From: Clostridia bacterium
GTDB lineage: Bacteria > Bacillota_A > Clostridia > Christensenellales > Borkfalkiaceae
Assembly: GCA_017399665.1 (NCBI GenBank)
Contig: JAFQBR010000132.1
Location: 1-23,670, forward strand
Length of the DNA: 23,670 nt
Direction: 5' to 3'
Part shown: one piece after another, positions 8,177 to 22,340 of the stretch
Position numbering within the stretch: position 1 is the stretch's first letter
Layout of the letters: every line of letters begins with the position of its first letter
Made by a program: the position numbers and the translations under genes
Notes under the pieces: model-generated
Told to the model about the DNA's origin: nothing
The model's input: the letters and a program-made list of their open reading frames with translations, nothing else
Database searches by the model: none

Positions 8177-11100
8177 ATGAAAAAATCAGTATTACTAAAA
8201 GCTTTAATCGTGCTTTTAACGTTATGCGCTACGCTTTCTTTTTCTGTAGCTTGTAGCAAAAAGCATAGTTGTTCTTACAATATTGAAGGCGAGCAGTTAA
8301 GGGCTTCTACATGCATTGAAATGGGCGAAAAAGTAATGTATTGTTCTTGCGGACAATCAATTACGGTAAGCATTCCTAAAGCAAATCATGAATATGGAGA
8401 AGGTATTGTAACTAAAGCTGCTGATTGTAAAAATCAAGGAGAGATGGTTTATAGATGTGAGGTTTGTTTGGATGAAAAGAAACAAACTATTCCTGCAACA
8501 GGTGAGCATGATTACGCAGAAATAATGTTGAAACAGCCAACTTGTACAGAATATGGTGAAAATCTTCTTATTTGTACCACCTGTGAGAAGCAAGAACATG
8601 TAAAAATTTCAAAGAGTGAGCACGTAAACGTTCAAAGAATTAACATAAGCACACTGCGCACTAAGGCTACTTGCGAAAGTAGTGCTACGTACTGGTATTC
8701 GTGCGACAATTGCGGAAGTGTTTCTAGCAGTGAGTATTTTGAATATGGCGAGGCTTTAAATCATGATTGGGCTAATGACTATTCTTGTGTGCAAAATTAT
8801 TGTTTAAATTGTGAAGAAAAAGCGGATGGAGATGGGAAGCACCTTTATGGTGAGTGGCAAGAAGCCCCCATTAGCTTATGTAGCGCCACACCAATTCTTT
8901 TTCACGCGTGTGTAAATTGTGGGTATATTGAAGACGCTGAGGGTAGTCAAAACGCCATATTACACCACGATATAGAGTTTTTAATTAGTAAAGATGCAAC
9001 TTGTGAAGAGGGTGGCGAGTATACTATAGGATGTAAAAATTGTGATTTTATACAGACGACTTATACTGATGCGTTAGGGCATTCCTATAAATGGGTAACG
9101 ACAAGCAGTGCTCACAAGCAGGTTTGTAAACGACATGGTTGTTCAAGTGTAATAGATGAAGGTGCACACGTTGCAGGAGAAGATGCAACTTGTACGCAAG
9201 ACCAAGTTTGTATTTATTGCGATTACGTTATTACCCCTCATACTGGCCATGCATATACTGAGCTTGCCGATAAAGATCCTACCTGTACGCAAAGCGGTTA
9301 TAAAAATGCTATGGTATGTGATAACTGCGGTTATTTAAGCATGCAATTTTTACCTGCGTCTCATAAATATGTATACGTAAAAGGAATAGAGGCAACATGT
9401 ACGCAAAACGGTGTTATCAACCACTATAACTGTACGTCATGTAACAAGCTTTTTAATAGACATTATCAACAAATCTCAAATATTACAATACCTGCTACGG
9501 GGCATAACTTAGATGAAGTATGGGTGGCAAATAAAACTCAGCATTATCACGTTTGCATAACCTGTAACGAAAAACAAGAGGTTGGTGCGCATAGCTCAAG
9601 CGGACCTGCAACGGAAAAGAATGCAGAAGTGTGTACCGTTTGCGGTTATGAAATTGCTCCTAAATTAAAGCATAATCATAAATATACACATAGTGTAGTA
9701 GCGCCTACCTGTATAAGTAGGGGGTACGATCTACATAAATGTGAAAATTGTAAGTATAGCTATAAAGACAACTTTGTTTCTGCAACAGGGCATAATTATG
9801 TGAACTATACAGTAAAAACAGTTGCAACCTGTGAAGGAGCTGAAATAAGTGAAGGTGTTTGCTCTGTTTGCGGGGCAAAGAACAGTAAAACAACAGGCGA
9901 AAAGTTAGGGCATATTATAAGTGCATGGCAATATGGGACAGAATACGAATGTCCCAAGGGTGGATATATGTATAAAATCTGCCTGCGTGAAGGCTGTGGA
10001 ATAATTATCGATGAAAAAAATCCAAATAAGGGCGAACATAGATGGAGTAATTGGATTTACGAGCTTAATCCCACGTGCAACCAAACGGGACTAAAGCATA
10101 AAGAGTGTACTCTTTGTGGTGCGCATACGCAAAGTGAAGAAGATCCTATACTTGGGCATGATTATAGAAATTATACAACTGTAATTCAACCCACTTGTGA
10201 GTCCAGCGGAATAGGAAACAAAACCTGTTCAAGATGTGGCGATGTTGCGACTTACGATAAAGAGGCATTAGGTCATATTTTAGAAGATGTTATAGATAAA
10301 GCCCCATCTTGTATAGAGGAAGGAAGTGCTCACAAACAATGTAAAAGGAAAGGGTGCCTATACAAAGAGGCTAGTTATGGCTTGCCTATTGTAGATCACG
10401 AATATAAAATCAAAGTGGACGTAGAGCCAAGTTGTTTCTACAAGGGGCATTATGTTAAAATTTGTGCATGCGGTAAGATTAGCGAAAGCGGAGATCTTGA
10501 CGAAACAAATCACGTCTATGAAAAAATTTACGTTATAGAAACAACTTGCGATAAAGATGGCCGTTATTATGAAAGATGTAAATTCTGTCACCTGAAAAAG
10601 CAAACTCAAACAGAAGATGCATACGGTCATAATTTTGGCAGTTGGCAAACGGAAATTGCTGCAAAATGTGTAGTTCCTGGCGTTAAAAAGCATGAATGTA
10701 GTAGATGTTTGCTTGTGGAAAGAGAGTTAATTCCTGCAACTGATCATAAATTTGTAAAATATGAAAAAGATGATTACTGCCATTGGTTAAAATGCTCAAA
10801 CGGCAGTTGTCCTGAAAGAACGGGTTATGCTGTTCACAGTTATAGTGTAAGTGAAAAATCCTTAACCCAATATGGTGGCGGAAAAATAACATATACTCAT
10901 TGGTTAAGATATACCTGTGACGTCTGTGATTATTATTATGATGGCGAAAAAATTTCAAACGTAAAACATAATTCAGTTAGCATTAAAAAAGGCTATCCTG
11001 CAACTTGTACAGAAAACGGCTTAACGTACGGTATTGTTTGCGCTGTTGCTAATTGTGGAAAAGTTATATTAGAGCAACAAGTTATACCTGCAACTGGCCA

Positions 11101-13225
11101 TAAACAAAGCGATTGGCACGAAAAATCGGCCTCCACTTGCACAAAAGCAGGCGAGGAACAAATTACTTGTGTTTACTGTTGCGCAGTTTTACAAATTAGA
11201 AGTAAAGATATTTTACAGCATGTTGCTGGCAGTATGAAAACAGTAAAATGGGCTACGTGTGAGCAAGCTGGGTTAAAACAGCAAAAGTGCTTACATTGCG
11301 GTATTATTTTAAAAGAGGAGACAATATCCGCAAAGGGGCACGAATATAGCACCTCTTGGTCGTTTAATGGCGAAACTCACTATCAAACGTGTTTAAACGG
11401 TTGCGGTTTAAAACGCTACGAAGAATCGCACGAGTTTAGAGAGGAAATAGCAAGTTATAGCTATAGCGAAAACGGTATAGATACTTACAAGGTTTGGATT
11501 GAATACACCTGTTCTTGTGGTTATTCATACAATAGTGACGTAGCAACGGTAATTCAGCATAATTTATTTAAAATAATACCGGCTAAAGAGCCTACTTGTA
11601 CAGAACAAGGTCATAGCGCTTACGTTATTTGTGCTGTAGAAGGCTGTGATGATGTTTTAATTGAGCCTTCATATATTGATCCATTGGGTCATGATTTAGT
11701 TGACGGCAAATGCACAAGGTGTGGTTATGAACAAACTGACAACAAATATTTCATTTTTGAACTGCTAGATGATGACACGTATAGTGTGAAAGAAGACACA
11801 AGATATGTAAATTCACTACCAGCAAAAATTATTATTCCTTCAACATATCAAAACAAACCTGTTACAACCATTGCGGAAGATGCTTTCACTTCTTGTAATA
11901 ACATGGAAGAAATTGTTATACCGAATAGTATAACAAGAATAGAAAATTACGTTTTTTATCAATGCTATTCGTTACAAGAACTTATTATACCAGATAGTGT
12001 AAAGTATATTGGTGATGGATTTGCTAGAGAGTGTATAAGCATAAAAAATGTCAAAATTCCTAATGATTTCACATATATTAGTGGTAAATTTTTTGCATAC
12101 TGCACCGCTCTTGAGAATATAGAAATACCAAGTACTGTAACAGTAATCGACTCTAATGCCTTTAGGGGTTGTGAATCTCTTACGAGTATAGTTATTCCAA
12201 TTAGTGTTAATATGATTTGGGATGAGGCTTTTGCAGAGTGTCCTTCACTTATTGTTTTTTGTGAATCAACTAATAAAGATCCAACTTGGAACGCTGGTTG
12301 GGAGGACTCTTTGGTTTACTACTATAAAGAGACGCAGCCCACAGAAAGTGGAAATTATTGGCATTACGTAGATGGCATTCCAACAATTTGGGAAATTGTA
12401 GTAGAAGAAACAGCTTTTACACGAGATGGGGATTATATTTATATGGGTTTGTATCCGCAAACGATAAAGGCAGATAATATTACTATTAGTTCTATTAAAA
12501 ATGAACAGGGTTATTTTCTTGGTAGCGATAACGAATGGTATGCAAAAGTTGTTGCGACTCCATCAGGCACCGGGTACAAGTTTTCTAATTCAACGACTGT
12601 AATAAGTAATAATGTGTATTATTTTAAAGTTGAGCCAATTAAGTGGAGAATAATAACTGATGGAATTGACGGCATAGCCTATCTTTTGTGTGAGAGTGTA
12701 ATAGACAGTAAAAGGTATGATGACGATAGCAATGATTATGATTATAGTGAAATAAAAGCCTGGATAAATGAAGAATTTTATAATGTGGGTTTTAATGACT
12801 TACAAAAAGGAGTAATAGTGAGTGCTTATGTAAACAACAACTCATCTTTAACAAGTATTCATGGACCTAGTTTGTATGTTCCAAGCAACGAAGTGTTTTT
12901 ACTTAGCTATTATGAATTAACAAAAAACAAATATTTATTTAACACAAATGAAACACTGCCAAGTTCAAACAGAAGCAAGAAAGCAAGCGATTATGCAATA
13001 TGTGTGGGTGCAATAATTACCACAAACACAGATTATTATGGCTATTCGAGCTGGTATCTTCGTACTATTACAGAAAATCATAAGGACTGTGTTATGTATG
13101 TTAATGAAACGGGTGTTGTAAATAATAGTGTTTGTGTTTATGAAAAAGGATATGGAATAGCCCCTGTTTTATATATTCGTTTAAGAGAGAGCAACTTAAG
13201 TGGCGGAAATATTTCTTTGGCTTAG
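8177..13225 (+). CDS. Giant lipoprotein with ~two dozen Cys-rich repeats, BspA-type LRRs and a DUF6273-like domain
   Basis: The 1682-residue protein starts with a lipoprotein signal; the lipobox FSVAC puts the lipidated cysteine at residue 26. Residues ~30-1185 hold about two dozen degenerate 35-50-residue units of the form (A/P)TC-x3-G-x4-C-x2-C-x~10-IPA-x-GH-x-(Y/F), each giving two or three Cys plus a His. Residues ~1190-1365 are five BspA-like leucine-rich repeats (IPNSITRIENYVFYQCYSL, IPDSVKYIGDGFARECISI). Then follows the linker TQPTESGNYWHYVDGIPTIW seen after such repeats. Residues ~1410-1682 resemble DUF6273 (YMGLYPQT, ...EVFLLSYYEL, SSWYLRT, GIAPVLYIRL). The cell-surface location is inferred from the lipobox. 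The Cys/His spacing suggests small metal-bound or disulfide-locked knuckles, but this is not shown. The gene sits alone between two terminators with its own promoter; a GGGAG ribosome site precedes the ATG. Repeats of this type are common in gut Clostridia; no function is established that I know of. Confidence 0.9.
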   Translation: MKKSVLLKALIVLLTLCATLSFSVACSKKHSCSYNIEGEQLRASTCIEMGEKVMYCSCGQSITVSIPKANHEYGEGIVTKAADCKNQGEMVYRCEVCLDEKKQTIPATGEHDYAEIMLKQPTCTEYGENLLICTTCEKQEHVKISKSEHVNVQRINISTLRTKATCESSATYWYSCDNCGSVSSSEYFEYGEALNHDWANDYSCVQNYCLNCEEKADGDGKHLYGEWQEAPISLCSATPILFHACVNCGYIEDAEGSQNAILHHDIEFLISKDATCEEGGEYTIGCKNCDFIQTTYTDALGHSYKWVTTSSAHKQVCKRHGCSSVIDEGAHVAGEDATCTQDQVCIYCDYVITPHTGHAYTELADKDPTCTQSGYKNAMVCDNCGYLSMQFLPASHKYVYVKGIEATCTQNGVINHYNCTSCNKLFNRHYQQISNITIPATGHNLDEVWVANKTQHYHVCITCNEKQEVGAHSSSGPATEKNAEVCTVCGYEIAPKLKHNHKYTHSVVAPTCISRGYDLHKCENCKYSYKDNFVSATGHNYVNYTVKTVATCEGAEISEGVCSVCGAKNSKTTGEKLGHIISAWQYGTEYECPKGGYMYKICLREGCGIIIDEKNPNKGEHRWSNWIYELNPTCNQTGLKHKECTLCGAHTQSEEDPILGHDYRNYTTVIQPTCESSGIGNKTCSRCGDVATYDKEALGHILEDVIDKAPSCIEEGSAHKQCKRKGCLYKEASYGLPIVDHEYKIKVDVEPSCFYKGHYVKICACGKISESGDLDETNHVYEKIYVIETTCDKDGRYYERCKFCHLKKQTQTEDAYGHNFGSWQTEIAAKCVVPGVKKHECSRCLLVERELIPATDHKFVKYEKDDYCHWLKCSNGSCPERTGYAVHSYSVSEKSLTQYGGGKITYTHWLRYTCDVCDYYYDGEKISNVKHNSVSIKKGYPATCTENGLTYGIVCAVANCGKVILEQQVIPATGHKQSDWHEKSASTCTKAGEEQITCVYCCAVLQIRSKDILQHVAGSMKTVKWATCEQAGLKQQKCLHCGIILKEETISAKGHEYSTSWSFNGETHYQTCLNGCGLKRYEESHEFREEIASYSYSENGIDTYKVWIEYTCSCGYSYNSDVATVIQHNLFKIIPAKEPTCTEQGHSAYVICAVEGCDDVLIEPSYIDPLGHDLVDGKCTRCGYEQTDNKYFIFELLDDDTYSVKEDTRYVNSLPAKIIIPSTYQNKPVTTIAEDAFTSCNNMEEIVIPNSITRIENYVFYQCYSLQELIIPDSVKYIGDGFARECISIKNVKIPNDFTYISGKFFAYCTALENIEIPSTVTVIDSNAFRGCESLTSIVIPISVNMIWDEAFAECPSLIVFCESTNKDPTWNAGWEDSLVYYYKETQPTESGNYWHYVDGIPTIWEIVVEETAFTRDGDYIYMGLYPQTIKADNITISSIKNEQGYFLGSDNEWYAKVVATPSGTGYKFSNSTTVISNNVYYFKVEPIKWRIITDGIDGIAYLLCESVIDSKRYDDDSNDYDYSEIKAWINEEFYNVGFNDLQKGVIVSAYVNNNSSLTSIHGPSLYVPSNEVFLLSYYELTKNKYLFNTNETLPSSNRSKKASDYAICVGAIITTNTDYYGYSSWYLRTITENHKDCVMYVNETGVVNNSVCVYEKGYGIAPVLYIRLRESNLSGGNISLA

Positions 13226-17479: not shown

Positions 17480-18073
17480 ATGAAGGTATTTATAGAGCCT
17501 ATTGGTAGGCTCATAAACGAATTTACAAAATTACCGGGGGTTGGCACTAAAACTGCTCAGCGTTTTGCCTATAAGGTTATTAATATGACTGATGAAGAAG
17601 CTCACGCCTTTGCAGAAAGCATTATCAATGCCAAAAAACAGGTAAAATATTGCTCCATTTGTGGGAATTATAGCGAAAACGAGGTTTGTGATATCTGCAA
17701 AGAGCGTTCTAAAGAAACTGTTTGCGTTGTAAAAGAGCCAAAGGACGTTATCGCTCTTGAAAAAGCGCATGAATTTTCTGGTGTGTATCACGTTCTTCAC
17801 GGCACGCTTAGCCCATTAGACGGTATTGGTCCAAACCAAATCCGCATAAAAGAGCTTTTAGATAGAGTAAGGGAAGGTGAAATTAAGGAAGTTATTATGG
17901 CTACCAACCCCGACGTAGAAGGGGAAGCTACCGCTATGTATATAGCAACTCTTTTAAAACCCCTTGGTGTAAAAGTTACCCGTTTAGCTCACGGAATTGC
18001 TGTCGGCACGGATATAGAGTATGCCGATGTTAGTTCGTTGTCAAGGGCTATTATTGATAGACGCGACATGTAA
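17480..18073 (+). CDS. recR: Recombination mediator RecR
   Basis: Ring-forming protein that acts with RecO and RecF to load RecA on single-stranded DNA at gaps. The 197-residue protein has the N-terminal helix-hairpin-helix (LPGVGTKTAQRFA, 18-30), a four-cysteine zinc finger (C58, C61, C70, C73), a Toprim domain (VCVVKEPKDVIALEK from residue 81, then MATNPDVEGEATAMYIA), and the C-terminal Walker-B-like region TRLAHGIAVGTDIEYAD. It begins three bases after ybaB ends and is the last gene of the operon. No terminator follows directly; transcription probably runs into the repeat array and ends at 18672-18703. Confidence 0.95.
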   Translation: MKVFIEPIGRLINEFTKLPGVGTKTAQRFAYKVINMTDEEAHAFAESIINAKKQVKYCSICGNYSENEVCDICKERSKETVCVVKEPKDVIALEKAHEFSGVYHVLHGTLSPLDGIGPNQIRIKELLDRVREGEIKEVIMATNPDVEGEATAMYIATLLKPLGVKVTRLAHGIAVGTDIEYADVSSLSRAIIDRRDM

Positions 18074-18076
18074 AAA

Positions 18077-18204
18077 AATAAGCTTTATATGCTTCGTTAT
18101 TGGCATAAAAATTTACGTTTTGGCTCAGTTACGTACGCAAAAGTACGCGCCTTTCGCCAAATCCGCATTTTTAAGCCACTAACTTGCATCTAAACCTTAT
18201 TTAC
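18077..18204 (+). repeat. Palindromic tandem repeat, unit 1
   Basis: The 128-base unit is the most diverged of three head-to-tail copies. It folds as nested stems: AATAAG (18077-18082) with CTTATT (18196-18201); ATGC (18089-18092) with GCAT (18186-18189); TGGC (18101-18104) with GCCA (18175-18178); seven A/T pairs 18106-18112 with 18167-18173; TTTGGC (18119-18124) with GCCAAA (18156-18161); and an apical CGTAC (18132-18136) with GTACG (18143-18147). The loop is GCAAAA. It begins three bases after the recR stop. Confidence 0.85.
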
Positions 18205-18331
18205 AATAAACTTTATATGCTTCGCATTTGTCGCAAAAAGTGCGTTTTTACTCAGTTGTTTACGCTAAGTAAACGTCCTTCGTAAAATACTCCTTGTTTG
18301 TGCCAACTGCTTGCATCTAAAACTTATTTAC
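18205..18331 (+). repeat. Palindromic tandem repeat, unit 2
   Basis: The 127-base unit keeps all stems of unit 1 but with different bases: AATAA (18205-18209) with TTATT (18324-18328); ATGC (18217-18220) with GCAT (18313-18316); TTGTCGCAAA (18228-18237) with TTTGTGCCAA (18297-18306), one mismatch and one G-T; TTTTAC (18246-18251) with GTAAAA (18282-18287); GTTTAC (18258-18263) with GTAAAC (18269-18274), loop GCTAA. It is near-identical to unit 3 between CGTTTTTACTCAG and the GTGCCAACTGC block. Confidence 0.88.
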
Positions 18332-18460
18332 AATAAGCCTTATCTGCTTCGTTATTGGTATAAAAATTTACGTTTTTACTCAGTTATTTACGCTAAGTAA
18401 ACGTCCTTCGTAAAATACTCTTTGTTTGTGCCAACTGCTCGCATCTAAACCTTATTTTAC
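18332..18460 (+). repeat. Palindromic tandem repeat, unit 3
   Basis: The 129-base unit has AATAAG (18332-18337) with CTTATT (18451-18456); TTGGTATAAA (18355-18364) with TTTGTGCCAA (18425-18434), ten pairs including two G-T; TTTTAC (18374-18379) with GTAAAA (18410-18415); and an apical TTTAC (18387-18391) with GTAAA (18397-18401), loop GCTAA. No ORF is carried inside or between the units. Confidence 0.88.
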
Positions 18461-18521
18461 CATAGCCATTTTGCGTGAGTAAATTACGCATTTATGCGCG
18501 CATGTAATCAAAGATTTATCG

Positions 18522-18703
18522 TTGTATGTAATTACACCGCAAGGTATGTATATAATAAGAGCGAGCACTAAGTTCTCACGGGTGCGAATATCATTTTGCA
18601 TTAGCAATAAAATTTATTAAAAGTGCCTATATGACGCGATTAACGGCATATTCATATTATATAAACAGTATAAAACAGTAGTAAAAAGGCTACTGTTTTT
18701 TTT
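18522..18703 (+). ncRNA. Possible short untranslated RNA downstream of the repeats
   Basis: The region 18461-18703 has no ORF and is not repeat sequence. A weak promoter-like pair is present (TTGTAT 18522-18527, 17 bases, TATGTA 18545-18550, with an overlapping TATAAT at 18551-18556). A strong terminator ends the stretch at 18703. A transcript of roughly 140 nt is possible. It contains no tRNA, SRP RNA, tmRNA or riboswitch signature that I recognise. It could equally be the untranslated tail of the recR transcript. Confidence 0.25.
18672..18703 (+). terminator. Rho-independent terminator
   Basis: AAAACAGTAG (18672-18681) pairs with CTACTGTTTT, 8-base loop TAAAAAGG, with an eight-T tail. It is the first terminator after recR, so it would end both operon readthrough and any RNA started at about 18560. 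The remaining gap 18704-18808 is plain A/T-rich DNA. Confidence 0.9.
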
Positions 18704-18808
18704 GTTTACTCTTAACTAAAAATGACTACTAAACTAATAAATTAATGAAAAAGAGAAAAAGTAATAGCAACAGAATTAAAGTAAAAAATTAATAAAAATT
18801 AACAAATC

Positions 18809-18896: not shown

Positions 18897-21800
18897 ATGA
18901 AAAAATCATTATTTGTGAAGCTTCTTATAGCTACTTTAAGCATTATGATGGCACTAGGTGGATTAGTTGCCTGCGGGGGAACACAAGAGCCTACTAACAG
19001 TGGCGAATCCTCTGCTATACAAAACAGTAGTAGCGCAGCGCATGAACACAGCTGGGTTGAGGCGGATTGTTTAAACCCTAAAACCTGTTCATCCTGTGGA
19101 AAAACGCAAGGCGAGGCTCTTGGGCATAATTTTGGCGAGTGGTTTGAAACTCAGCCTGCAACTTGCCAAGCAGAAGGAGAAAAGCGTAGGAATTGTAGCG
19201 TGTGCGGTTATTACGAAACCAGAATGATCTTCGTTATAGATCACGTTTATGAAAACGGCGCCTGCACCATGTGCGGAAAGGCAGAAGAAGTAGAACTAAC
19301 GATTGCTCAAATCAAAACCAAAATAGATGAAAATCCAAGTGGTTGTGAGGTTACTTTTACCGGGGTTGTTGTTGGTTTTGACTCAATGGGTTATGCGCAC
19401 GTAGGTGATGAAACGGGTATTATTTACGTTCGCGCAAAACACGCTAACTTAACGTTAGGTGCTTTAGTTAAAATTAGCGGCGAGGGTATCGTTTATGAAG
19501 GTAGTGCAAGCTATCCTGAATATACCCGCCAAATTAAAGCGGATGGAATTACCGTTGAACTTGCAAGTGGAAACGACCCCACCGTTAAGGAAGCGGTAAT
19601 CGTTAGTTCAAAGGATTTAAAGGTTAGTGCAGAAAGCGATAAATCCAAAGAATTTCACGGCAACCTAGTAACCGTAACCGGTACTGTATACGTTGGTAGC
19701 GATAAATTTAATTATTACCTATTAGATGATGAAGGAAATCAATTGGTTGGGCTTCATCACTATTCAATGCATTTTGCAAACAGCGTGGAAGATTCCGTAA
19801 ATAAGTTCAACGCGTTAAACGGCAAGAAGATAACCCTAACTGGCGTTATATACCGTTTATATACGGCGCAAAATCTTTGGACCTTGCAATATATTTATAA
19901 CGAGCTTGAATACACCGTTATTAGCGGTGGTGGCGAAAGCTGTTCTCACGCTTGGCTTGACGCTGATTGCTATAACCCTAAAACTTGCTCGCTTTGCGGT
20001 GCAACGGAGGGTGAAGCTTTAGGTCACGAAGAGGTTATAACTAAGGCTGAAGAGCCCACTTGTGAAGAGAGCGGTTTAAGCGCGGGTAAATACTGTAGCA
20101 GATGTGATGAAGTACTAGCTCTCCCTTCAGTAGTTCCTGCATTAGGTCATACCGAAGTTGTAGATAATGCAGTAGCGCCTACTTGTACGGAAACCGGCTT
20201 AACCGAAGGTAAGCACTGCTTGGTATGTAAAAAGGTATTAAAAGCGCAAGAAACGGTTGCTGCTTTAGGTCATAATTATTATAACGGAAGTTGCACCGTT
20301 TGCGGAGCGAAAGATGATGGATATCACGTTCACTCTTGGAAAGCTGCAACCTGTGATAATCCCAAGACTTGTTCAACCTGTGGTGAAACGCAAGGTCAAG
20401 CATTAGGACATACTTGGCAGGAAGCAACCTGTGATACGGCTAAAACCTGTTTAATCTGTAAAAAGACGGAAGGGGGCGTTTTAGGTCACAATTTTGGCGA
20501 TACGTATAGCTATGATTTAGCAAAACACTATAATTCTTGCGATAAATGCGGAAAGCAATCTTCTGCCGAACACAACTTTATAAACGGCGAATGTGAAGTT
20601 TGTAAGATGAGTAATCTTGTAACGGCTAAGCAGTTTAACGAATACGGTGAAACCTTTGCGCACAACACGACTTCAATCTTACAATATCGTATAAAAGGTG
20701 TTATTACTAAAATAGAAGACACTACTTGGGGTAACTGCTTTATTCAAGACGAAAGTGGGGAAAGCGTTTACGTTTACGGCTTATATAGCGAAGACGGGGT
20801 TGTATACGGCTCAATGCTGGTTAAGCCCCTTGTTGGCGACAGCGTAACTATTTTAACCGTATGCGGTAATTATAACGGACCTCAAGCTAAAAGAGCTTGC
20901 CTAGTTGAGTTAAGTTCACACGTTCACTCTTGGATAAATGCGACCTGCACAACACCAAAGACCTGTTCTTCTTGCGGTGCAACGGAGGGCGATGCTCTTG
21001 ATCACAGCTACGGCTCGGTAACATATAATTTAGAATGTCACGAAGTGGCGTGCACTGTTTGCGGAGAGGTTTTAGAGGGCGTTCACACTTTTGAAAACGG
21101 TGAGTGTAGCGAATGTGGAATGAGCGATTCCTTAACGCTAGCGCAGTTTAACGAATATGGCAGAACTTTTGCATTAAATAAGTATTCTACTTTAAAATAC
21201 CGCATATCGGGAAGAATCGTTCACGTAGATGAATCAAAATCTGTCTTTTATATTAGGGATGAGGAAGGTGAAGTCGTTTCCGTTGCCGGAATTGAGTATT
21301 TCGACGGCAACGTAACTAGGGTTGAGCTTACTAAAGAAATTGTTGTTGGAAACACTATTACGGTAGTTGCTAAATGCGGAAACAACGCTGGCTTACCCCG
21401 CGGAACAAAAGCAAATTTAGTTACTTTTACTCGCAACTTAGTTGACGGTTACATTGAATTTGAAGATTATATTTACTTTGGTTACTATCCTCAAACAAAG
21501 GTAACCGACGAAGAATTATTAGTTACCTTAAATCAAATGGTAGGCGCGCTTCCCACGGAAACAGACTCTGCCGATTGGATTGATTACGGTTACCGCCGTA
21601 TTTTAGTTAATAATAATCCTTTTATGTGGTATAAAGACGTTAAGGTTGGCGTTGATACCTATAGAGCCGTATATTTCAGCACTGCCCGTCCTTTACAAAG
21701 TTACGTTAGCTCAAATAAGGGAAATCAAGGTTCTAACGGTTATTACGCCGGAACGGTTTACTGGTTTAGGTTTGACGTAATTAGATGGAAGGTTTTAGAA

Positions 21801-22340
21801 AGAAAACAAGATAGAGTATTTTTAATTAGTGACTTGATTATTGATTCACAATGCATTTATAGAAGCTCGGCAGTAAGAAGTGAGGACGTTGCAATTTGGC
21901 CCAATAACTATGAAAGAAGTGATTTAAGAGCTTGGCTTCACTCAGATTTTTATAACGGAGCATTTACTGCAACACAGAAAGAAAGTATTTTGCTTACCAA
22001 CGTTGATAATAGCCTAGCAAGTACCGGCGACACAAGTAATAACTTTGTTTGTAACAATACGCAGGATAAAGTATTTTTATTAAGCCGTGTTGAAGCTAAT
22101 GCTTATTTAGAAGCAGGCGCAAACTTCTATAAGATACCAAGCGCATATACTTTATCTCAAGGTCTTTCAATCAATAATAATCACAATTATTCATGGTGGT
22201 TACGCACGCCTCATTATTATGATCACCAAAATCAAGGAAGAAGCTCATTACTTATTGATGGAGTTCTTAACGCCGTTGGTTCAACCGATTCTAACTATAC
22301 TGACGTTGGCGTTGTTCCCGTTCTTTGGATGAGTCTTTAA
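18897..22340 (+). CDS. Modular lipoprotein: Cys-rich repeats alternating with OB-fold-like domains, DUF6273-like C-terminus
   Basis: The 1147-residue protein has a lipoprotein signal with lipobox LVAC (Cys at residue 26). It is built from alternating modules. Cys-repeats are at ~49-130, 350-575 and 680-740 (HSW-x2-A-x-C-x3-KTCS-x-CG-x2-x-G-x-ALGH). OB-fold-like beta domains are at ~134-230, 232-345, 575-675 and 741-845, with the pattern 'VTFTGVVVGFDSMGYAHVGDETGIIYV'-like strands. The third and fourth are close copies of each other (AQFNEYG / KQFNEYG, TFA, YRI-G-I). Residues ~850-1147 are the same DUF6273-like domain as in the 8177 lipoprotein (YFGYYPQT, VFLLSRVEA, WWLRTP, VGVVPVLWMSL). A very strong GGAGGCGG site precedes the ATG. 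The OB folds resemble those in secreted nuclease-associated proteins, so binding of nucleic acid or sugar is possible; no catalytic residue is visible. Surface location is inferred. Confidence 0.88.
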   Translation: MKKSLFVKLLIATLSIMMALGGLVACGGTQEPTNSGESSAIQNSSSAAHEHSWVEADCLNPKTCSSCGKTQGEALGHNFGEWFETQPATCQAEGEKRRNCSVCGYYETRMIFVIDHVYENGACTMCGKAEEVELTIAQIKTKIDENPSGCEVTFTGVVVGFDSMGYAHVGDETGIIYVRAKHANLTLGALVKISGEGIVYEGSASYPEYTRQIKADGITVELASGNDPTVKEAVIVSSKDLKVSAESDKSKEFHGNLVTVTGTVYVGSDKFNYYLLDDEGNQLVGLHHYSMHFANSVEDSVNKFNALNGKKITLTGVIYRLYTAQNLWTLQYIYNELEYTVISGGGESCSHAWLDADCYNPKTCSLCGATEGEALGHEEVITKAEEPTCEESGLSAGKYCSRCDEVLALPSVVPALGHTEVVDNAVAPTCTETGLTEGKHCLVCKKVLKAQETVAALGHNYYNGSCTVCGAKDDGYHVHSWKAATCDNPKTCSTCGETQGQALGHTWQEATCDTAKTCLICKKTEGGVLGHNFGDTYSYDLAKHYNSCDKCGKQSSAEHNFINGECEVCKMSNLVTAKQFNEYGETFAHNTTSILQYRIKGVITKIEDTTWGNCFIQDESGESVYVYGLYSEDGVVYGSMLVKPLVGDSVTILTVCGNYNGPQAKRACLVELSSHVHSWINATCTTPKTCSSCGATEGDALDHSYGSVTYNLECHEVACTVCGEVLEGVHTFENGECSECGMSDSLTLAQFNEYGRTFALNKYSTLKYRISGRIVHVDESKSVFYIRDEEGEVVSVAGIEYFDGNVTRVELTKEIVVGNTITVVAKCGNNAGLPRGTKANLVTFTRNLVDGYIEFEDYIYFGYYPQTKVTDEELLVTLNQMVGALPTETDSADWIDYGYRRILVNNNPFMWYKDVKVGVDTYRAVYFSTARPLQSYVSSNKGNQGSNGYYAGTVYWFRFDVIRWKVLERKQDRVFLISDLIIDSQCIYRSSAVRSEDVAIWPNNYERSDLRAWLHSDFYNGAFTATQKESILLTNVDNSLASTGDTSNNFVCNNTQDKVFLLSRVEANAYLEAGANFYKIPSAYTLSQGLSINNNHNYSWWLRTPHYYDHQNQGRSSLLIDGVLNAVGSTDSNYTDVGVVPVLWMSL

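What the first reader, a model, noticed from the sequence alone, without database searches (positions are those of the whole stretch)
18077..18460. Three tandem ~128-bp units, each a long imperfect palindrome with compensatory base changes between copies
The three units are head-to-tail and cover the space just after recR. Each folds from end to end into nested helices. Where units differ, paired bases often change together: TTTGGC/GCCAAA in unit 1 becomes TTTTAC/GTAAAA in units 2 and 3 (two co-varying pairs), and the apical CGTAC/GTACG becomes TTTAC/GTAAA (two more). TTGGTATAAA/TTTGTGCCAA in unit 3 keeps ten pairs using G-T, and unit 2 keeps nine. Keeping the pairing while the bases drift indicates selection on a structure, in RNA or cruciform DNA. 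I recognise no named repeat family. Options are a structured non-coding RNA in multiple copies, a mobile palindromic element, or recognition sites for a DNA-binding or recombination protein.
Basis: seen in the sequence. Interest (0 to 1): 0.8.

Follow-up and report, generated by a model that had tools for sequence, protein, structure and literature searches.

The report
ERIC-like DNA hairpins at stop codons
Three 128-base hairpin-shaped DNA repeats behind a repair gene turn out to be local copies of a family of scattered repeats in uncultured gut bacteria that resembles the well-known ERIC repeats of E. coli and tends to sit exactly where genes stop, which gives a new way to ask how such repeats move.

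Summary
In detail: three head-to-tail units (18077-18204, 18205-18331, 18332-18459) lie between the recR stop codon and a likely terminator; each folds end to end and the stated compensatory changes exist. They belong to a dispersed family: a covariance model of Clostridia copies matches in 115 of 151 sampled genomes of one GTDB family, 85 of 248 of its order and 9 of 299 of its phylum. Over 40 copies the pairing covaries strongly. G-T mispairs are no commoner than A-C, unlike in tRNAs, so pairing looks conserved as DNA rather than sense RNA. The model finds all 9 ERIC loci offered; a model of ERICs alone gives 24 hits in 1.1 Mb of Clostridia, all on these elements. On one contig 19 of 24 copies start within -13..+4 bases of an upstream sense stop codon (random 1.3% for -15..+5). 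One copy is missing from all 28 informative relatives. Likely an ERIC-like non-autonomous mobile hairpin; its enzyme is unknown (no Y1_Tnp or DDE_3 in 8 genomes).

The parts
17480..18073 (+). recR, the gene whose stop codon (TAA, 18071-18073) the array follows
Evidence: ORF of 197 aa; 193 places encode a relative, best 89% identical.
18077..18204 (+). unit 1 (ERIC-like hairpin, 128 bp); left box ATATGCTTCG 18087-18096, apex GTTACGTACG..GTACGCGCC 18128-18151, right box CTTGCATCT 18183-18191
   Evidence: TRF; fold; model R2 109 bits; ERIC-only model R3 13.0 bits with filters off, top hit of 901 bases
18205..18331 (+). unit 2 (127 bp)
   Evidence: R1 127.4 bits; R2 90.3 bits with filters off, not listed by R2 with default filters; R3 11.4 bits with filters off
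18332..18459 (+). unit 3 (128 bp)
   Evidence: R1 130.5 bits; R2 86.4 bits; R3 only 2.3 bits, on 18411-18459
18460..18607 (+). tail module, itself a repeat in a related genome
   Evidence: 96.4% identical over 18460-18710 in L001; 74-89% pieces elsewhere in G001, several beside such units
18672..18703 (+). likely intrinsic terminator downstream of the array (AAAACAGTAG..CTACTGTTTT, then T run)
   Evidence: terminator-like site 18672-18699 with T-rich tail, 11 pairs. Consensus match only.

Best explanation
The units are copies of a large family of ERIC-like elements: non-autonomous, mostly 125-130 bp, quasi-palindromic mobile DNA. Shown: dispersed copies; nearly fixed length; constant short boxes at the base and apex with freely changing but complementary arms and mid-stem; near-identical dispersed copies in G030; sense placement at the stop codon of the upstream gene in G376 and most G001 arrays; a filled site against empty sites; profile relationship to ERIC. 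Inferred: what is recognised is the DNA hairpin (single-stranded or cruciform), moved in trans by an enzyme not yet identified, and joined at gene 3' ends so that the gene keeps a stop codon and the element lies ahead of the terminator. Three successive units behind recR would then reflect repeated insertion beside each other, perhaps with one duplication (units 2 and 3). Once there they should be transcribed as a 3' UTR hairpin array and may change mRNA decay, as reported for Yersinia ERICs.
For: Dispersal and range: (in only 11-150 candidates per genome were scored, so copy counts are lower bounds). Covariation. Strand-symmetric pairing. Gene-end placement: on G376:C1 21 of 24 copies are sense to the upstream ORF and 19 of 24 start within -13..+4 of its stop codon, against 1.3% of random intergenic position-and-strand draws for -15..+5; orientation follows the gene, not the replichore. 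Empty sites: of 29 relatives with the same gene, 28 hold 600 or more bases beyond it and none has a copy at E up to 1; the 29th holds 64 bases. Recent spread in G030. ERIC relationship: R2 gives one hit in each of 8 further ERIC loci, at the ERIC, and nothing else in 28.6 kb, and the first E. coli ERIC; R3 gives 24 hits in 1.11 Mb of Clostridia, all 24 on known copies and their strand.
Against: No enzyme was found: Y1_Tnp 0 of 8, DDE_3 0 of 8, RVT_1 2 of 8 high-copy genomes; no copy split by a gene and no arm-bounded element in about 2.2 Mb of contigs. No excess of direct target duplication. The window's own genome is not held. R1 does not find ERIC, and unit 3 hardly matches the ERIC model. 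G376 copies look old: none of 18 has a 90% partner. In G030 about a third of the 35 copies printed sit, by eye, behind a GC-rich hairpin rather than directly at a stop codon, and 9 G030 copies have an antisense ORF upstream.
Confidence: 0.72

Rival explanations
1. A structured non-coding RNA or 3' UTR element: pairing is kept because the transcribed hairpin controls decay or termination of the upstream mRNA.
For: Sense orientation at stop codons, ahead of terminators; good folds; conserved unpaired bases; Yersinia ERICs are said to affect upstream mRNA (PMC2229807, passages).
Against: G-T mispairs are not commoner than A-C in the sense strand while tRNAs show 42 to 5; no Rfam family; absent at one site from 28 of 28 informative relatives.
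Confidence: 0.15
2. Fixed, non-mobile DNA sites bound by a nucleoid, replication or recombination protein, kept by selection at gene ends.
For: Constant boxes and length across Clostridia; DNA-like pairing.
Against: Orientation follows genes, not replichores; matches run from 0 to 52 among recR-relative genomes; near-identical dispersed copies in G030.
Confidence: 0.06
3. An integron-like attC site: a folded single strand recombined by a tyrosine recombinase at the 3' end of genes.
For: Length, imperfect hairpin with conserved unpaired bases, sense position at gene ends. The attC features are recalled.
Against: Arms share no constant core between genomes; upstream genes include ordinary chromosomal ones such as recR and a phosphoglucosamine-mutase-like gene. 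No integrase was searched for.
Confidence: 0.04
4. The likeness to ERIC is convergence of two unrelated palindromic element families.
For: Outer arms differ and the TA target of ERIC was not seen; scores are modest (18.5-31.8 bits).
Against: Each ERIC locus offered was found in place and strand, and all 24 reciprocal hits fell on copies; the linear order of boxes is the same.
Confidence: 0.15

Closest known systems
ERIC / IRU / RU-1 (enterobacterial repetitive intergenic consensus; MITEEc1, MITEPlu5)
   Same: 126-127 bp, one long imperfect hairpin, same order of boxes (left ATA-CTTC, apex GTCACNTAC..GTANGCTCC, right GCCTT..TGCAACTCG beside TTGCTCGCATCT), multi-copy and intergenic; in the few ERIC loci fetched a stop codon is often close; recognised reciprocally by covariance models.
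   Different: Host phylum (Bacillota, Clostridia); outer arms differ per genome and are not TATACCC; no excess of direct duplications; tandem arrays; in G376 the arm often carries the stop codon itself; no DDE_3 protein in 8 genomes, though termini like those of IS630-type transposons are reported for the Photorhabdus ERIC (PMC6267812, passages).
REP / BIME / REPIN with RAYT transposase
   Same: Extragenic palindromes in high copy, mosaics with other modules.
   Different: REPs are 20-40 bp (PMC3733652, start of abstract in the listing); here about 128 bp; Y1_Tnp found in 0 of 8 genomes. The RAYT link is recalled and in the abstract of PMC2817692 (listing).
IS1272 and its inverted-repeat-replacing insertion (PMC5678879, abstract and outline seen)
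   Same: Insertion tied to inverted repeats without target site duplications.
   Different: IS1272 carries a transposase gene; these elements carry none. Only an analogy.

Membership tests
ERIC/IRU | about 126-127 bp imperfect palindrome folding as one long stem-loop | tested here: met
   units 127-128 bp, folds, copies mostly 125-130 bp
ERIC/IRU | ERIC sequence-structure profile | tested here: met
   for the family: R2 finds 9 of 9 ERIC loci (two of them the same Rahnella locus) and R3 gives 24 hits, all on copies. For the window's units the direct match is weak: 13.0, 11.4 and 2.3 bits; R1 finds no ERIC
ERIC/IRU | terminal TATACCC repeats with TA target duplication | tested here: not met
   arms are AATAAG, TGAGGCGG, TAAACTTCG and others; no excess of direct repeats in 19 G376 copies. 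The Rahnella and one Pantoea ERIC also lack these ends
ERIC/IRU | reported hosts: Enterobacteriaceae and Vibrionaceae | tested here: not met
   115 of 151, 85 of 248 and 9 of 299 genomes of G001's family, order and phylum samples; reported range from PMC10969869 (passages)
ERIC/IRU | transcribed, affects mRNA | not testable with these tools
   no RNA data
REP/REPIN | 20-40 bp palindrome and RAYT (Y1_Tnp) in the genome | tested here: not met
   length; PF01797 0 of 8
Rfam RNA families | match at gathering score | tested here: not met
   0 matches in the window; the two weak hits at E up to 5 lie at 18584-18705, not in the units
integron attC | integron integrase and conserved R'/R'' core | tested here: inconclusive
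   no constant arm core seen; integrase not searched
IS630-mobilised MITE | IS630-type DDE transposase in the genome, TA duplication | tested here: not met
   PF13358 0 of 8; no direct-repeat excess. The genomes are assemblies of unstated completeness

The most novel reading that the evidence does not exclude
A cross-phylum superfamily of DNA hairpins that insert at stop codons by a fold-back route: the hairpin is joined to the 3' end of the coding strand and its free 3' end copies back the last codon (and sometimes more) of the host gene, which makes arms that are partly host sequence and leaves an inverted instead of a direct target duplication. In 19 G376 copies the bases beyond the TGA pair at 18, 17 and 11 copies at the first three positions, then at 3, 7 and 2; inverted flank repeats exceed all 300 shuffles, direct ones do not.
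Probability: 0.2. Interest if true: 0.92.

Novelty: new variant of a known kind. Interest (0 to 1): 0.72.

Why it matters
ERIC elements have been known since 1990-91 as an enterobacterial repeat whose mover is not established. If the relationship holds, the family is far older or more mobile between phyla than described, and Clostridia offer many sequence-divergent copies with structure intact. That separates what stays constant (boxes, length, some unpaired bases) from what may change (arms, mid-stem), points to DNA rather than RNA as the form recognised, and gives empty and filled sites and a stop-codon rule with which to look for the enzyme.

Tried and rejected
Rfam at gathering score and at a loose E-value found nothing in the units. 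Recent local triplication: unlikely. Replichore placement was suspected because orientation is uniform along many contigs, and rejected: on G376:C1, where GC skew turns at about 470 kb, copies follow the upstream gene on both sides. Palindrome correction by template switching as the whole cause of covariation: not favoured, since eight unpaired columns hold one base in 37-40 of 40 copies; it cannot be excluded for single pairs. RAYT, IS630 and reverse transcriptase as movers: 0, 0 and 2 of 8 genomes. Copies with a gene between the halves or between arms: none in the contigs held. One G001 copy against plasmids and one G030 copy against phages: no blastn match. R3 over 61 genomes at E up to 1e-5 found nothing, G001 included, so that search says nothing. 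Host origin of longer arms: in G376 copy 176076 the left arm encodes the last three residues (SKS) of a GlmM-like protein, whose relatives end FASKG, FAMKC, FALKD, and its right arm is the complement; whether those relatives carry the element is unknown. Copy 71889 looks alike but its CTTAAG is self-complementary, so it proves nothing. Literature: nine searches of the held open-access library; no title or abstract start that they listed reports ERIC-like elements in Clostridia. The lists were capped at 12-20 rows while up to 8,080 papers held the terms, and most subscription papers, among them De Gregorio 2005, are not held.

Full report
What is there. The window's own genome is not held; its closest recR relatives are Clostridia assemblies. 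A 197-aa ORF read as recR ends with TAA at 18073; after three bases, units of 128, 127 and 128 bp follow head to tail to 18459. A terminator-like hairpin with a T-rich tail starts at 18672, so the array would lie in the recR 3' UTR.

It is a dispersed family. Unit 1 as a DNA query found 13, 9 and 3 places at E up to 0.01 in the genomes of the three closest recR relatives. A first covariance model (R1, 24 copies) matched in 15 of 45 recR-relative genomes at E up to 0.001, with 43, 21, 30 and 52 matches in G001, G002, G003 and G030. A second model (R2, 40 diverse copies) matched in 115 of 151 sampled genomes of G001's GTDB family at E up to 1e-5, 85 of 248 of its order at 1e-7 and 9 of 299 of its phylum at 1e-7; each sample includes G001 itself. 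Only 77, 23, 14 and 11 candidates per genome were scored in these four calls, so copy numbers are lower bounds. The family sample includes G044, reached through a Candidatus Borkfalkia locus; NCBI places that genus in Christensenellales. The eight other genomes of the phylum sample, whose kinship is not told, were searched again with 150 candidates each and hold 1 to 12 matches at E up to 0.001, 125 to 130 bases long, with the same boxes in those I printed.

Anatomy. Constant: a left box like ATAARCKTCGC, an apex like GTCACGTAC-loop-GTACGCTCC, a right box like TTGCTCGCTTCT, and the total length. Variable but complementary: the outer arms (11-12 bp in G376) and the middle stem. On the 40-copy alignment, made on sequence alone, 80.4% of 1990 cells pair (59.8% shuffled, 31-46% slid) and 405 cells have changes on both sides (145 shuffled, 71-84 slid); covariation score 0.502 against 0.162 and at most 0.111. 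On 24 G376 copies, none used to build R2 but aligned to it, the figures are 79.1%, 203 and 0.406 against 59.5%, 68.0 and 0.133 shuffled. The structure was derived from the 40 sequences, which favours 'cells paired'; the 24-copy alignment was fitted to the model and leans towards it.

RNA or DNA. If the sense RNA were what is selected, G-T mispairs should outnumber A-C mispairs. In pairs with at least 75% Watson-Crick cells I count G-T 22 to A-C 34 (34 pairs, 1354 cells), 59 to 48 (33 pairs, 2215 cells) and 13 to 22 (36 pairs, 773 cells); binomial p-values 0.14, 0.33 and 0.18. The first two sets share copies, and the last two are alignments fitted to R2. For 35 tRNAs of the G030, G001 and G032 contigs the count is 42 to 5 over 595 cells (p 2e-8); an earlier tRNA count on ARAGORN's brackets could not show A-C pairs and is not used. 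So pairing is kept in a strand-symmetric way, as expected for DNA. Template-switch correction of palindromes would also give this, but bases that do not pair are conserved too, three columns at 40 of 40.

Placement. Of the R1 copies on the fetched contigs and the window, opposite-strand doubles of the same copy dropped, 55 of 64 with an upstream ORF are sense to it; the 9 exceptions are all in G030, and two further copies had no upstream ORF. Many of these 66 belong to the same arrays. In several of the 9 the flank shows a sense stop codon directly before the element although my simple ORF caller chose an antisense ORF (inference). On G376:C1, a whole 702-kb contig, 21 of 24 copies are sense and 19 of 24 start within -13..+4 bases of the stop codon; random intergenic draws give 1.3% for -15..+5. 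The stop codon (mostly TGA) lies at the start of the arm TGAGGCGGTTA in many copies. Ten of 15 G001 arrays begin within 5 bases of a stop codon (counted by hand); three more, 33 to 40 bases off, look like a longer form whose extra arm would reach the stop, as seen behind recR in L001. Orientation follows the gene and not the replichore. In G030, of the 35 copies printed, part sit right behind a stop codon and about a third behind a GC-rich hairpin, by eye.

Mobility. At G376:C1:411998 the gene ends GAC GAT TGA and the element follows. The same gene in 29 further loci, 24 of them 77-86% and 5 of them 67-70% identical, shows no copy with R2 at E up to 1; 28 of these loci hold 600 or more bases beyond the stop and one (L324) only 64. 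L321 and L322 have a gene with a like start (ATGAARAAATATATWGC) within about 50 bases behind, as G376 has behind the element. Behind recR itself L002 has no element while the window, L001 and L003 do. In G030 30 of 34 copies have a partner at 90% identity or more, in G001 11 of 25, in G376 0 of 18.

The mirrored codon. In 19 G376 copies with a TGA and a TCA at the two ends (5 of the 24 hits were dropped because no such pair was found) the next outward bases pair at 18, 17, 11, 3, 7 and 2 of 19 copies. Inverted flank repeats average 5.5 bases against 3.9 (maximum 4.5) in 300 shuffles; direct ones 3.2 against 2.8 (maximum 3.3). For copy 411998 the mirrored GAT is likely the host's codon, since relatives end GAT TAA or GAT TGA among other D/E codons. 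Reading: either the insertion copies back a few host bases, or the target already had a small inverted repeat, or selection lengthens the stem afterwards. This is the least secure part.

Relation to ERIC. After I noticed (from memory of ERIC primers) the likeness of apex and right box. Tests: R2, built without any ERIC, gives one and the same ERIC as its only hit at E up to 10 in three E. coli loci (28.8 bits, E 5.9e-5; one ERIC in three strains), and in eight further loci from E. coli (2), Klebsiella aerogenes, Pantoea (2), Kosakonia and Rahnella (2, the same locus in two species) exactly one hit each, at the ERIC and in its orientation (18.5-31.8 bits, E 6e-6 to 0.015). R3, built from seven ERICs, gives 24 hits at E up to 10 in 1.11 Mb of Clostridia; all 24 lie on R2 copies, same strand, best E 0.0035 (coincidence checked by eye). 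It misses most copies there. In 65.7 kb 7 of 8 hits are elements. The window's units score 13.0, 11.4 and 2.3 bits with R3 when filters are off and R1 does not find ERIC, so the link of these three units to ERIC runs through the wider family. ERICs too were found behind sense stop codons, with gaps of about 0-6 bases in K. aerogenes, one Pantoea and the Rahnella locus; in Kosakonia and the E. coli loci the nearest stop belongs to a convergent gene, and the other Pantoea has none within 20 bases.

What is known. Passages of PMC2759123, PMC2229807, PMC10969869, PMC2267715 and PMC6267812 and the abstract of PMC5678879 were seen. They describe ERIC as a hairpin MITE of about 123-127 bp in Enterobacteriaceae and Vibrionaceae with TA duplications, effects on mRNA in Yersinia, and IS630-like termini in Photorhabdus; PMC2229807 states that how such sequences move is a question for future work. 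None of the nine searches named in Tried and rejected listed such elements in Clostridia, within the held library and the rows shown.

Verdict. An ERIC-like family in Clostridia, a new variant of a known kind: the same architecture and profile, but other hosts, other arms, no TA rule seen, and a strong stop-codon rule. It is not filed as ERIC in the strict sense because the terminal-repeat and target features were tested and not met.

Noticed in passing
window 18460-18607: A second repeat module follows the units; it is 96% identical behind recR in L001 and recurs in pieces elsewhere in G001, several of them beside such units.
   Followed up: partly
window 8177-13225 and 18897-22340: Two very large ORFs (1682 and 1147 aa) with lipoprotein-like starts (by eye) and many CxxC repeats; the second starts alike in L001 behind the array.
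   Followed up: no
G030 contigs (L136-L154): Intergenic mosaics: a GC-rich hairpin plus CTTTGCTNCCG before some elements and TTCGTAATTGCA or AAATAATATCGGAGC..ATTAAGGCACT modules after some.
   Followed up: no
L286:12174-12250, L304:6814-6942, L315:11448-11576, L317:18903-19030 (G376): A second G376 subfamily with a left end like TTGAAAGCACATTCATCGCG; 3 of these 4 start within 5 bases of a stop codon.
   Followed up: no
L285:9907-9954, L305:15646-15713, L305:10913-10986, L311:9726-9793 (G376): Short derivatives of 48-74 bases that keep arms and base boxes but lack the apex.
   Followed up: no
L099, L101 (G002), L103, L105 (G001): Copies with the usual ends but another apex (like CCTGCGACCAACAAGGTCGCTCCCTGCG), as if the apex stem were exchangeable.
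   Followed up: no
L255 (G587), L111 (G032): These copies sit directly behind an intrinsic-terminator-like hairpin instead of a stop codon.
   Followed up: no
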